NCBI GenBank assembly: GCA_020723345.1
Contig: DYJA01000028.1
Coordinates: 1-56,782 of the forward strand
From: Candidatus Aquidulcis sp.
GTDB lineage: Bacteria > Chloroflexota > Anaerolineae > UBA4142
Reading direction: 5' to 3'
DNA: 56,782 nucleotides
This document shows, in pieces, positions 1,242-19,064 of this stretch. Numbering within the stretch: position 1 is the first letter of the stretch; every line of letters begins with the position of its first letter. The notes below the pieces were generated by a model that did not search any database, was not told the DNA's origin, and saw nothing but the letters and a program-made list of their open reading frames with translations. The translations under genes and the position numbers were made by a program.

Positions 1242-4200
1242 TTGAACATCGCAAATATTTCCATTCGCCGTCCCGTCATGATTGTGATGCTGATGGCTGC
1301 TCTCGTCGTCGTTGGTTATGTCGCATACATGCGACTGCCGGTCAACGCGTATCCGAACACGGATAACCCCATGGTTGGAGTGACGACGAGTTACCCTGGC
1401 GCCAGTCCGGAGGAGGTTCAGGCGTCAGTCTCCAAGCCATTGGAGGAGGCGCTGGGAACCATCAACGGCGTCACTCAAATCACTTCGGAGTCGAGCGAAA
1501 ATGTGTCCACCATCCGCATCGAGTTCAGTCTGGACACCGCGGTCGATAAAGCTGCTGAAAGTGTACGGGAAAAAGTCTCGGCGACGGTAGGTCAGTTTCC
1601 GAATGGTGTTGGCGATCCCGTCATTTCAAAATTCGATCCCGGTGCTATGGGAGTGATCGGTTTTAGCATTGTAGACAAGACCGGCAAAGCCCAGCCAGAC
1701 GAGTTGCGCCGGCTGGCGGATAACCAGATCAAACCGCGCCTCGAGCGAGTGAGTGGCGTCGCCGACGTCAGTGTTTCCGGTGGCTACGTTCGTCAGATTC
1801 AAGTGAACCTCAAACTCGATGAACTGAACTTGCGGCGTGTCAGCGCCGCTCAAGTCGTCAGCGCCATCCAAGCCGAGAACCAAAATCTGCCGGGCGGCAC
1901 CGTCACGGATAGCGGCAAGAACTTGCTCGTGCGCACGCCCGGGAACTTTCAGACGGTTGACGAAATTGGAAAAATCGTCGTGACGACGAACGGCGGCGTA
2001 CCGACCTACCTCCGAGATGTCGCACAAGTCAAGGACGGATTCGAAGACGTTAGTTCGTACATTCGCCTCAACGGAAAGGACACCGTCTCAATCTCGGTCA
2101 TCAAGCAATCAGGTACGAACACGGTGAAGGTGGCTGACTTGGTCAAGGCGGAGCTAACCAAGATTCAGCGCGATTACCCTAATCTCGATATCATCATTTC
2201 CACCGATCAATCCATTTCGATCAATGAGTCCACCTCGGACGCGCTCCGCGATCTCGTGCTGGGTGGTCTATTCGCCGCGTTGATTGTGTTCCTCTTTTTC
2301 CGGAATATCCTCAACACTGTGATCACGGTTGCCGGTTTGCCTATTATCATGATCGGCACCTTCGCCGGAATGAACCTTTTGGGAATGGGCTTGAACATGA
2401 TCACCTTGCTGGCATTGTCGCTCGCGGTTGGTCTGGTGATTGACGACGCGATCGTCGTGCGCGAGAATATTTTCCGACACATCGAACGGGGAGAGACGCC
2501 CAGGGAAGCAGCGGAAAAGGGGACGAACGAGGTTTCCCTTTCGGTTCTCGCGATGACACTCACGGTGATTTCGGTGTTTTTGCCCATCGCGTTCATCTCT
2601 GGCATGATTGGTGTGTTCTTTCGCGAATTCGGTCTAGTGGTGTGCATCGCGGTGGCGCTCTCGCTTTTTGAGGCATTCACCATGGCGCCAATGCTCTCGG
2701 CGCACATGGGTGGGTCACACAAGCCGAAAGCCAATCACTCAACCTTGGATGCGGACGCCGACCACATGAACTGGCTCGACCGGACTTACCACCGGCTCTT
2801 GGTTTTGGCGCTGCACCACAAACGTACCACGACCATCATCGCCGTCGTCGTGTTCGTCTCTATTTTTGCCTTGGCGGCATCGAGCGAAATGAGTCTAATG
2901 GGCAGTATCTCTAGCGATACTTTTTCGGTGACGCTGCAACTCGACCGCGGCACGCCGCTCGAAACGATAGACAAACAAGCGCGGGAGATTGAACAGGGGT
3001 TGATGCAATTGCCCAATGTCAAGTATGTCTACACGACGGTGGGCGGGAGCAGTTCATCGGAAAAAGCAACTTTCTCAGTTCGGATGAATGAGACGGGGCA
3101 GCCGAGCAAAATCGAGTCACAGGTACGTCAGAAATTCGCAAACGTGAACGGATTGACATTCAGCTTTGCTGGTATGGGGCCTGGCTCGGGCGCGACCAGC
3201 AAGAGAATCCAGGTGAATGTCAAGTCTACTGGATCGCTGACGGAGTTGCAAAAAGCGGCGCAAGAAGTCGAAAAGGCAATGCGTGATGTTCAAGGCACGG
3301 TGGACATAGAGAGTAGCGCCCAATCAGGTAAACTGGAGATGCACGTGATGGTGGATCGCGAGCGCGCCGCGCGTGCCGGACTGAGCACGACCAGCGTTGG
3401 CTCGACGCTACGCACGTTACTCAATGGTACGACGGCATCACGCTATCGCGAATCCGGCAAGGAAGCGGACATTGTGGTGCGGTTGCGCGCAGAGGATCGC
3501 TCCCGCATGGACGACATTATGGCGCTGACGATGTCGAGTACGTCCGGTCGCCAAGTGCCACTCCGCAACGTGGCGACGACCGTGGCTAGCACGGGCCCAT
3601 CTTCGATCCGACGTGTCAACCGCGAGTACCAGATCGTCGTCGGCACGAACTATTGGGGGCGCTCCGAAAATGCAGTCACCAATGATATCCGCGCGCGCCT
3701 TGCCAACCTGAGTCTACCTGACGGTGTGACCACTGCCTTTGGCGGAAATGTTCAGACGATGAACGAATCGTTTGCCTCGCTCATGTTCACGCTCTTACTT
3801 TCGATCATCTTTGTGTACATGGTGCTGGCGTCTCAGTTCAACTCGTTCACTCAGCCCCTGGTGTTGATGCTCTCGTTGCCGCTATCCGTCGTGGGGGCGC
3901 TGCTCGCGCTCCGCTTGGTACACATGAGTCTGGATATGATCTCGCTGATCGGCATCATTCTGCTGCTGGGACTGGTCACCAAGAACTCGATCCTGCTGGT
4001 GGACTTTGCCAACCGGCAGCGCGAAAAGGGTGCCAGCCGCGAAGAAGCCATGCTGCGGGCTGGTCCGGTTCGGTTGCGTCCTATTCTGATGACGTCGTCC
4101 TCGTTGATTCTGGGCATGTTGCCAGTGTCCCTGAGTCTCGGCTCAAGTGGCAGTTTTCGGGCGCCTATGGCGGTAGCGGTGATCGGCGGTCTCATCACCT

Positions 4201-4343
4201 CGACGTTATTGACGTTAGTGTTTGTCCCGGTGGCATACTGCCTCATGGATGCCGCGATCGAAAAAGTCAAGCGACTGCGGCGAAGAGAGCCCTCCGTTGC
4301 TTCCACGTCGGCAGCAGATGCTCCTGCGCCGGCAGCGAAATAG
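1242..4343 (+). CDS. RND multidrug efflux permease (AcrB/HAE1 family)
   Basis: Proton-driven inner-membrane exporter of about the usual length (1033 aa). The TTG start at 1242 follows GAAAGGA at 1228-1234. The N-terminus NIANISIRRPVMIVMLM is typical of the family. The proton-relay aspartates are in GLVIDDAIVV (D401, D402) and the matching lysine is in GLVTKNSILLVDF (K914). Two blocks of membrane segments (about 330-530 and 850-1010) flank porter-domain repeats (GGxxRQIQVNLK). It forms an operon with the adaptor upstream and two secreted proteins downstream. Substrate cannot be read from sequence. In a single-membrane cell the pump would work without an outer-membrane channel, which is inference. 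Confidence 0.96.
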   Translation: MNIANISIRRPVMIVMLMAALVVVGYVAYMRLPVNAYPNTDNPMVGVTTSYPGASPEEVQASVSKPLEEALGTINGVTQITSESSENVSTIRIEFSLDTAVDKAAESVREKVSATVGQFPNGVGDPVISKFDPGAMGVIGFSIVDKTGKAQPDELRRLADNQIKPRLERVSGVADVSVSGGYVRQIQVNLKLDELNLRRVSAAQVVSAIQAENQNLPGGTVTDSGKNLLVRTPGNFQTVDEIGKIVVTTNGGVPTYLRDVAQVKDGFEDVSSYIRLNGKDTVSISVIKQSGTNTVKVADLVKAELTKIQRDYPNLDIIISTDQSISINESTSDALRDLVLGGLFAALIVFLFFRNILNTVITVAGLPIIMIGTFAGMNLLGMGLNMITLLALSLAVGLVIDDAIVVRENIFRHIERGETPREAAEKGTNEVSLSVLAMTLTVISVFLPIAFISGMIGVFFREFGLVVCIAVALSLFEAFTMAPMLSAHMGGSHKPKANHSTLDADADHMNWLDRTYHRLLVLALHHKRTTTIIAVVVFVSIFALAASSEMSLMGSISSDTFSVTLQLDRGTPLETIDKQAREIEQGLMQLPNVKYVYTTVGGSSSSEKATFSVRMNETGQPSKIESQVRQKFANVNGLTFSFAGMGPGSGATSKRIQVNVKSTGSLTELQKAAQEVEKAMRDVQGTVDIESSAQSGKLEMHVMVDRERAARAGLSTTSVGSTLRTLLNGTTASRYRESGKEADIVVRLRAEDRSRMDDIMALTMSSTSGRQVPLRNVATTVASTGPSSIRRVNREYQIVVGTNYWGRSENAVTNDIRARLANLSLPDGVTTAFGGNVQTMNESFASLMFTLLLSIIFVYMVLASQFNSFTQPLVLMLSLPLSVVGALLALRLVHMSLDMISLIGIILLLGLVTKNSILLVDFANRQREKGASREEAMLRAGPVRLRPILMTSSSLILGMLPVSLSLGSSGSFRAPMAVAVIGGLITSTLLTLVFVPVAYCLMDAAIEKVKRLRRREPSVASTSAADAPAPAAK

Positions 4344-4369
4344 CAAGAAGGGGAATAGGAGAACAAACA

Positions 4370-5254
4370 GTGAAGCTGCTTAAAGTAATCATTCCGGTAC
4401 TGTTCCTCGTCGCATTGTTCGGCGTGGTTGTCCCAGTCTCCGCCGATCTACCTGGCACAAACGAAGACCCATTCGGAGGCTATCCGATTACCGGCACAAT
4501 TCCTGGTGGTGAAGGTGTTGTCGCAAAATTCGGACTGTCTCCTTTCGGCTATGCGTTGCCCGGCGGTGTCCCCAGTTTTCGGAGCGGCGACGGCACGACT
4601 CCACGCCGCGCCATCAACATCAGCGGAATTTGGGGACAAGAGTATCCCACGGCTATGGGACCAATTCTAGCAAGCGAAAGCCCCGATTCGTTTACCGTTA
4701 CCACCATCGAATTGCCTAATTGCGCTACGCTCAAAATTCCGGCAGGCAAAGCGCGCTGGTTCAAACTCGAAGCGTACGCGGATCGCCGCACCCAAATCTG
4801 GCTGGACGATGAGTTGGATGGCGCCAAGACCGCTTCTGGTCGTGCCACGTTTGGCGCTGCCGATCAGTACATGCTCGGCACTACGCCTGGCGATGGCTGG
4901 GGAGTTAACTCACTCCAAAACTCTGCTCCTCAAACGTCCAACTTTCTCGAAGGGTTCGTCATGGCGATCTATGATCCCGACAACCTGAAACCGATGTCGG
5001 CATTCCAGTCGCCGAACGCCGCGATCTTGACCGTCAACACTGATGAGCGCGGCTTGCTCCTTCCCGGTCCCGACAATATCTCCGTCACTGACGCGACTGG
5101 CGCAGACATTCACGGCTATGGCAGTTACAACTCCAACATCACGAACCATCTTTTGTGGTACGAAGGGCGTTTTGCGGGCTGGGTATTCGTGATGGTCTAC
5201 AATCAAATGGTTTGGGATGGGACTGCCAGTGTGTGCAGCCAGCGTGCCTGGTAG
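4370..5254 (+). CDS. Secreted protein of unknown function
   Basis: GTG start at 4370 with AATAGGAGA upstream at 4353-4361. A clear signal peptide (residues 1-26, ending PVSA) is followed by an all-extracellular chain of about 268 aa. No family is recognised. The sequence is rich in Gly, Asn, Pro and aromatic residues and includes a stretch (ARWFKLEAYADRRTQIWLDD) reminiscent of bacterial pre-peptidase or beta-sandwich domains; similar phrasing (LWFYFDYPGDRSKVEVGL) occurs in the next gene, so the two may share a domain. Only 26 bp separate it from the pump gene, so it probably belongs to the same transcript. Confidence 0.75.
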   Translation: MKLLKVIIPVLFLVALFGVVVPVSADLPGTNEDPFGGYPITGTIPGGEGVVAKFGLSPFGYALPGGVPSFRSGDGTTPRRAINISGIWGQEYPTAMGPILASESPDSFTVTTIELPNCATLKIPAGKARWFKLEAYADRRTQIWLDDELDGAKTASGRATFGAADQYMLGTTPGDGWGVNSLQNSAPQTSNFLEGFVMAIYDPDNLKPMSAFQSPNAAILTVNTDERGLLLPGPDNISVTDATGADIHGYGSYNSNITNHLLWYEGRFAGWVFVMVYNQMVWDGTASVCSQRAW

Positions 5255-18453: not shown

Positions 18454-18482
18454 TTGAATCAAGCAAAGGGAACGAGTATAAT
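18454..18482 (+). promoter_or_regulatory. Promoter-like site in gene-free region
   Basis: TTGAAT (18454-18459) and a perfect TATAAT (18477-18482) are 17 bp apart. No protein gene starts downstream for nearly 600 bp, so it may drive a non-coding transcript. Confidence 0.55.
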
Positions 18483-18682
18483 GGGCAAGCGCAAGAATAA
18501 CAGGGCAAGCAGAATTCTAGCGCAGGTTTTGTGCAATCATAGGGCAAATCGTTGTTTGACTTGCCATTTTGCACACTTCGCGACGATCTGACCATTGACC
18601 CAGGGGCACGAAATTACCATGCTGAGACTTCACATCGAACACACCGTGGAGCGTGAATGATTGGGTAGCCAACCAGAAGGTG

Positions 18683-18691
18683 TGCTATACT
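18683..18691 (+). promoter_or_regulatory. Extended -10 promoter for candidate RNA
   Basis: TGC TATACT at 18683-18691 is an extended -10 box; TTGGGT at 18661-18666 is a poor -35 at 19 bp. Predicted transcription start is about 18698. Confidence 0.45.
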
Positions 18692-18697
18692 CGGCAT

Positions 18698-18843
18698 AGT
18701 TCAGCGGGCGGCGATGTAGAAGTCCTTTGTATGTGATTTTGATTCTGCAGGGAGCGCGAGTGGGATTTTACCAGCGAGCGTTCGACGCCTATCGAACCCG
18801 CGATCAAAAAAGCGCGACAGGCTCATACCTGTCGCGTTTCTCT
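18698..18843 (+). ncRNA. Candidate structured non-coding RNA
   Basis: About 146 nt between an extended -10 promoter and an intrinsic terminator, with no credible ORF. Complementary segments predict a three-way junction: closing helix 18704-18708/18797-18801 (GCGGG/CCCGC) continuing as 18712-18715/18791-18794 (CGAT/ATCG); a hairpin arm 18716-18721/18743-18748 (GTAGAA/TTCTGC, one G-T); and a second arm closed by 18749-18751/18788-18790 (AGG/CCT). The arms abut the closing helix without gaps. It matches no RNA family I can name; tmRNA, SRP RNA and RNase P motifs are absent. 6S-like RNA is not excluded. Confidence 0.4.
18813..18843 (+). terminator. Intrinsic terminator
   Basis: Perfect 9-bp stem CGCGACAGG/CCTGTCGCG (18813-18821, 18828-18836) with a 6-nt loop, followed by TTTCTCT and preceded by an A-run. 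Confidence 0.85.
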
Positions 18844-18997
18844 ATGTTGGAAGATGTGTTAGATGAAGCATCTGAGGACTGTTCCGGGGTAGGAATGGTC
18901 GTGTTTGAGAGGAAAAACTTCGCTAGTGTCGTCAACGCGGCTTGGGACCGCGCGTTTGATTATGGTCGCCGTGTAACTGACTCGCCCCACCTATTTT

Positions 18998-19026
18998 TTG
19001 CCAAAATTGCATATTCGCGTTATCAT
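18998..19026 (+). promoter_or_regulatory. Promoter of the DUF2148 gene
   Basis: TTGCCA (18998-19003) and TATCAT (19021-19026) with a 17-bp spacer, 38 bp upstream of the start codon at 19065. Confidence 0.7.
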
Positions 19027-19064
19027 TCAATTGCAACATTTCAAAACTTGATGAGGAGATGGAT

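What the first reader, a model, noticed from the sequence alone, without database searches (positions are those of the whole stretch)
18454..18843. Candidate structured non-coding RNA with its own promoter and terminator
An 866-bp gene-free region holds a TTGAAT-17-TATAAT promoter, a second extended -10 promoter (TGCTATACT), and a strong terminator. Between the latter two, about 146 nt fold into a three-way junction whose helices abut exactly (18704-18715 with 18791-18801; arms 18716-18748 and 18749-18790). No known RNA motif was recognised.
Basis: partly seen in the sequence, partly recalled or inferred. Interest (0 to 1): 0.62.

Follow-up and report, generated by a model that had tools for sequence, protein, structure and literature searches.

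The report
Dispersed small-RNA gene family in Anaerolineae
The stretch is one worn copy of a previously undescribed family of short transcription units (promoter, about 110 bases, terminator) scattered through one family of Chloroflexota bacteria, often beside mobile or defence genes; it probably makes a small regulatory or guide-like RNA, but the exact shape first proposed for it is not supported and its function is unknown.

Summary
The window is from a Chloroflexota (Anaerolineae) genome. Homologues lie at about 23 loci, mostly in six genera of one family. Nine are full length. In copies found with a query that held neither promoter nor terminator, the promoter is conserved: TTGCCA/TTGCGA, exactly 17 variable bases, then TGTGC-TATAnT. 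A terminator follows 18 of 23 copies (13 of 225 random intergenic windows), with sequences that mostly differ. Rfam has no match. The neighbours vary: decayed or intact PrimPol-helicase 'TOTE' genes, IS21, a serine recombinase, comM fragments. The unit therefore looks like a small-RNA gene spread with mobile DNA, unrelated to the DUF2148 gene. The proposed three-way junction pairs no better than shuffles. A closing helix near the 3' end co-varies in relatives (best p 0.002 of five windows), but not clearly in this copy. The window copy looks worn: its -35 box is lost, its T-run is poor, and its core is no better conserved than the pseudogene remnant beside it. A weak coding-like signal on the other strand keeps one rival alive. 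Transcription is untested.

The parts
18454..18482 (+). TTGAAT-17-TATAAT promoter-like site; no counterpart in relatives, probably not part of the unit
   Evidence: no homologue
18511..18553 (.). degenerate end of an unrelated repeat, also found at three contig ends of the same genome
18663..18668 (+). position of the -35 box (17 bp from the -10); TTGCCA/TTGCGA/TTGCTG in most relatives, GGGTAG here (decayed)
18681..18691 (+). extended -10 TGTGC-TATACT, conserved in relatives
18698..18803 (+). core of the putative small RNA, about 106 nt, homologous in about 23 loci; most conserved part 18751-18800
18810..18839 (+). intrinsic terminator hairpin (12 pairs), bidirectional
18844..18935 (-). decayed remnant of a convergent unit, shared with contigs C10, C82 and C65 where it adjoins comM fragments
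18936..19058 (+). native upstream region of the DUF2148 gene with its own promoter TTGCCA-17-TATCAT (18998-19026); homology with same-genus G012 starts exactly at 18936

Best explanation
The feature is a copy of a dispersed family of small non-coding RNA genes. A sigma-70-type promoter (-35 TTGCSA, 17 bp, extended -10 TGTGCTATAnT) drives a transcript of about 110-150 nt that ends at an intrinsic terminator shared with a convergent neighbour. [Shown: homology, promoter conservation, terminator conservation, absence from Rfam.] The RNA is probably closed by a helix between a segment before the 3' block and the bases just before the terminator. [Moderately supported in relatives, not in the window copy.] The unit is carried around the genome with mobile or defence DNA and most likely acts in trans, as a regulatory RNA or as the RNA partner of a protein of such elements. 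[Inferred.] The window copy is a relocated, probably weakened paralogue, inserted with part of a convergent pseudogene upstream of the DUF2148 gene, which it does not control. [Position and boundary shown; loss of function inferred.]
For: Homologues: C10 of the same genome, 80% over 235 bp; G001, G006, G008, G010; class-wide search. Copies C64, C255, C14-58k, C14-70k and C79 were found with a query (A10) that held no promoter or terminator, yet have TTG(C/T)NN-17-TGTGC-like TATANT. Pairwise identity over nine copies: -35 0.57, spacer 0.34, extension 0.79, -10 0.82, flanks 0.37-0.39. TATAAT is about 6-fold enriched upstream of genes in this genome. Terminators at 18/23 copies, against 24/600 random windows, 13/225 random intergenic windows and 42/299 gene 3' ends, with mostly different sequences. 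Copies found later (L251, L252, L266, L267) also have one. Own P1 arms pair better than swapped arms, p 0.002-0.28 over five window choices. No Rfam match. The DUF2148 locus in G012 lacks the unit, with a sharp boundary at 18936.
Against: No expression data. Window against C10: core identity 0.70/0.81, not above the flanking remnant (0.79/0.84), and the -10 region 0.53. The consensus fold of the four closest copies is worse than that of column-shuffled alignments (z +0.78). The window's own P1 arms rank 11 of 12. Distribution is patchy; G012 and G013 of the same genus show no copy. A coding-like signal on the opposite strand.
Confidence: 0.6

Rival explanations
1. A non-autonomous mobile element or the terminal segment of transposons, which settles next to terminators; the promoter-like end is a TG...CA-type element end and no RNA function is selected.
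For: Copies are non-syntenic and lie beside IS21, a serine recombinase, TOTE genes and comM fragments. Homology to G012 stops sharply at 18936. Window and C10 share the flank beyond the terminator.
Against: No terminal inverted repeats or second end found. Copies are few (1-5 per genome). The -35 box is conserved across a divergent 17-bp spacer, which a promoter explains and an element end does not. Terminators differ between copies yet are present in 18/23.
Confidence: 0.2
2. Remnant of a protein-coding sequence on the opposite strand (reading ..GSDGRRxLAG/SGNFF..), preserved as pseudogene debris behind various terminators.
For: A profile of the minus-strand translation found new copies. In 21 copies that frame has the best amino-acid conservation (1/100 shuffles as good) and the order pos2<pos1<pos3 in variability.
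Against: Six frames were tested, so the effect is marginal. In the four closest copies codon positions vary equally and in 12 copies the test gave 15/300. No start codon or consistent reading frame upstream, no Pfam match, stops in several copies. Does not explain the promoter.
Confidence: 0.12
3. Not a gene but a conserved pre-terminator module in the 3' UTR of the upstream genes.
For: Several short copies lie 18-250 nt after same-strand genes of unrelated function (thiolase, RRM protein, RuBisCO-like protein, ABC permease).
Against: Full-length copies have their own conserved promoter, and in the window the upstream gene is about 500 nt away.
Confidence: 0.08

Closest known systems
Intergenic bacterial sRNA genes (promoter - short structured RNA - intrinsic terminator)
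   Same: Architecture, size, intergenic position, terminator shared with a convergent gene.
   Different: No Rfam family matches; copies are dispersed and tied to mobile or defence DNA rather than to one conserved locus.
6S RNA (ssrS, RF00013)
   Same: Size range and single-gene architecture.
   Different: No Rfam hit at gathering or relaxed threshold; up to five copies per genome, none found in many relatives.
RNAs carried by mobile or defence elements (retron ncRNA, omegaRNA, IS110 bridge RNA, tracrRNA)
   Same: Small RNA beside mobile or defence genes, possible closing helix.
   Different: No reverse transcriptase, TnpB/IscB, IS110 or Cas gene recognised next to the copies examined; own promoter and terminator.
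TOTE / PrimPol-helicase (Pfam PF22548) loci
   Same: Three full-length copies (G001:C141, G000:C64, G001:C255) lie just downstream of and convergent to such a gene or its remnant.
   Different: TOTE genes in G010:C42 and G012:C185 have no such RNA, and most copies of the RNA have other neighbours.

Membership tests
any Rfam 15 family (including 6S RNA) | covariance-model score above the gathering threshold | tested here: not met
   relatives L018, L017, L002
independent sRNA gene | own promoter conserved beyond its surroundings | tested here: met
   (family); window's own -35 lost
independent sRNA gene | intrinsic terminator conserved in function | tested here: met
   18/23 against 6% and 14% in controls
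independent sRNA gene | conserved secondary structure | tested here: inconclusive
independent sRNA gene | transcript detected | not testable with these tools
   no expression data available
independent sRNA gene | no coding signal on either strand | tested here: inconclusive
   flat or marginal; minus frame 1/100
cis-element of the DUF2148 gene | present upstream of DUF2148 orthologues | tested here: not met
TOTE-system component | present at every TOTE locus of relatives | tested here: not met
   present at G001:C141 (intact) and the C64 and C255 remnants, absent at G010:C42 and G012:C185; G011:C230 is cut by the contig end

The most novel reading that the evidence does not exclude
The RNA began as a dedicated companion (guide, primer or decoy RNA) of the PrimPol-helicase 'TOTE' conflict system, convergent to the TOTE gene in G001:C141 and at the decayed C64 and C255 loci, and has since spread as a free-standing small-RNA gene; TOTE systems would then include an unrecognised RNA part.
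Probability: 0.1. Interest if true: 0.8.

Novelty: new member of a known kind. Interest (0 to 1): 0.48.

Why it matters
Chloroflexota small RNAs are little described: none of the five full-text searches listed a paper on Anaerolineae sRNAs or on TOTE conflict systems, though coverage is limited to open-licence papers. This gives a concrete, searchable family with promoter, terminator and about 23 loci, found from one unannotated gap. Its recurrence beside PrimPol-helicase, IS21 and recombinase genes makes it testable whether mobile or defence islands in this phylum carry their own small RNA.

Tried and rejected
(1) Four closest copies only: the consensus fold was no better than column shuffles and the core no better conserved than its flank; at that stage a junk repeat looked most likely. 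Further copies showed the promoter conservation and changed the verdict. (2) Reading the minus strand as a gene: marginal signal, no start, no Pfam family; kept as a rival. (3) Transposon-end hypothesis from the TATAGCACA boundary: no second end or inverted repeat. (4) TOTE obligate partner: not obligate. (5) Viral, plasmid and phage collections: nine viral exact-pattern hits were chance matches with no homology around them; no plasmid or phage match. (6) CarD 3' UTR at the C10 copy: not shared with CarD orthologues. (7) Alignments with a locus on the wrong strand and one mis-oriented model alignment were discarded. (8) A9 pair counts are fitted to the model and include a chance viral hit; not used as evidence.

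Full report
Where it is. The window is C35 of a 6.3-Mb genome in 132 contigs. The nearest relatives of its DUF2148 protein are Anaerolineae (Chloroflexota) metagenome-assembled genomes. The gap lies between a class-III aminotransferase and a DUF2148 protein.

Observation. The two promoter-like sites and the hairpin are there. The T-run is better on the minus strand. The fold between promoter and terminator is ordinary (z +0.20). No Rfam family matches.

What the gap is made of. Searching the genome with the gap gave an 80% identical copy of 18701-18935 on C10, partial copies on C82 and C65, and short matches to 18511-18553 at three contig ends. In same-genus genome G012 only 18936 onward is homologous (87%). 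There the DUF2148 gene keeps the promoter TTGCCA-17-TATCAT, and a tyrosine recombinase gene lies upstream instead. So the part up to 18935 is foreign to this locus. Bases 18844-18935 are a remnant that in C10, C82, C65 and G008 joins fragments of comM.

Homologues. G001 has two clear copies in which the terminator has a different sequence. Model R1 found weaker ones. A profile of the opposite-strand reading of the 3' block, which holds neither promoter nor terminator, found more. Model R2, built from nine full-length copies, was run over 396 genomes of the class and found nine genomes with matches. Six are in the window's own family, with up to five copies each. G312 and one of the two G156 hits, from other families, look real (terminator follows); the second G156 hit and G307 look like chance. 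A shorter pattern search gave the same picture, with reversed-pattern controls at background.

Promoter. In the nine full-length copies the extended -10 (identity 0.79 and 0.82) and the -35 hexamer (0.57) stand out against the spacer (0.34) and flanks (0.37-0.39). TTG lies exactly 17 bp from the -10 in seven of nine. Five of these copies were found without promoter sequence in the query. In this genome TATAAT is enriched about 6-fold upstream of genes. The window copy has lost the -35 (GGGTAG) but keeps TGTGCTATACT.

Terminator. 18 of 23 copies are followed by a hairpin with a T-run, against 24/600 random windows, 13/225 random intergenic windows and 42/299 gene ends. Most hairpins differ in sequence between copies.

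Structure. The RNAalifold structure of four copies pairs well (95.8%) but is no better than chance by energy. With 12 copies, the bases after CCC at the 3' end pair better with their own upstream segment than with swapped ones. An upstream region to within about 35 nt gives p 0.025. A narrower region chosen by eye gives p 0.002, 0.008, 0.013, 0.08 and 0.28 for five arm lengths. Copies are related and choices were made, so this is moderate support. The window and C10 rank 11 of 12.

Coding. The opposite-strand frame GSDGRRxLAG looks protein-like. Codon-position tests were flat with four copies, 15/300 with 12 and 1/100 with 21, over six frames in the last two. No start codon, no Pfam match and internal stops argue against a working gene. 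This remains unresolved.

Neighbours. TOTE PrimPol-helicase gene (G001:C141) or its remnants (G000:C64, G001:C255), IS21 istA/istB (G001:C366), a serine recombinase (G008:C14), comM fragments (G000:C10, G008:C105). TOTE genes in G010 and G012 lack the RNA.

Conclusion. A real, unlisted family of dispersed small transcription units, best read as small-RNA genes moving with mobile or defence DNA. The window copy is a worn member. Expression and function are untested.

Noticed in passing
18511-18553: Degenerate copy of a repeat (CTAGCGTAGGTTTTGTGCAACC...) that ends three contigs (C30, C92, C52) of the same genome; probably an insertion-sequence end.
   Followed up: partly
L007:1314-1850, L008 about 4160-4600, L050:1663-2529: Fragments of comM/YifB broken at the same codon (QPLDN) and joined to a short sequence reading RNDLQCFNLSTLTTLAKFL, repeated in G000 and twice in G008:C105 (16.6 kb apart); comM may be a recurrent integration or duplication site.
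   Followed up: partly
L015 (G012:C104), upstream of the DUF2148 gene: A tyrosine recombinase gene abuts the same boundary (window 18936) where the window has the small-RNA block; possibly a recurrent integration site.
   Followed up: no
L057:435-2969, L245:4467-7202: Intact PrimPol (AEP-TOTE) + ResIII helicase genes next to conserved genes without Pfam match (MSEYQFFDFQ...), a poorly described conflict system in this family.
   Followed up: partly
L238:6960-7060, L057:330-440, L240:6120-6200: Conserved stretch CGGGGTCGAAGGTGGTACTATC between TOTE stop codons (or remnants) and the terminator.
   Followed up: no
18998-19026: Promoter TTGCCA-17-TATCAT of the DUF2148 gene, conserved in G012.
   Followed up: yes
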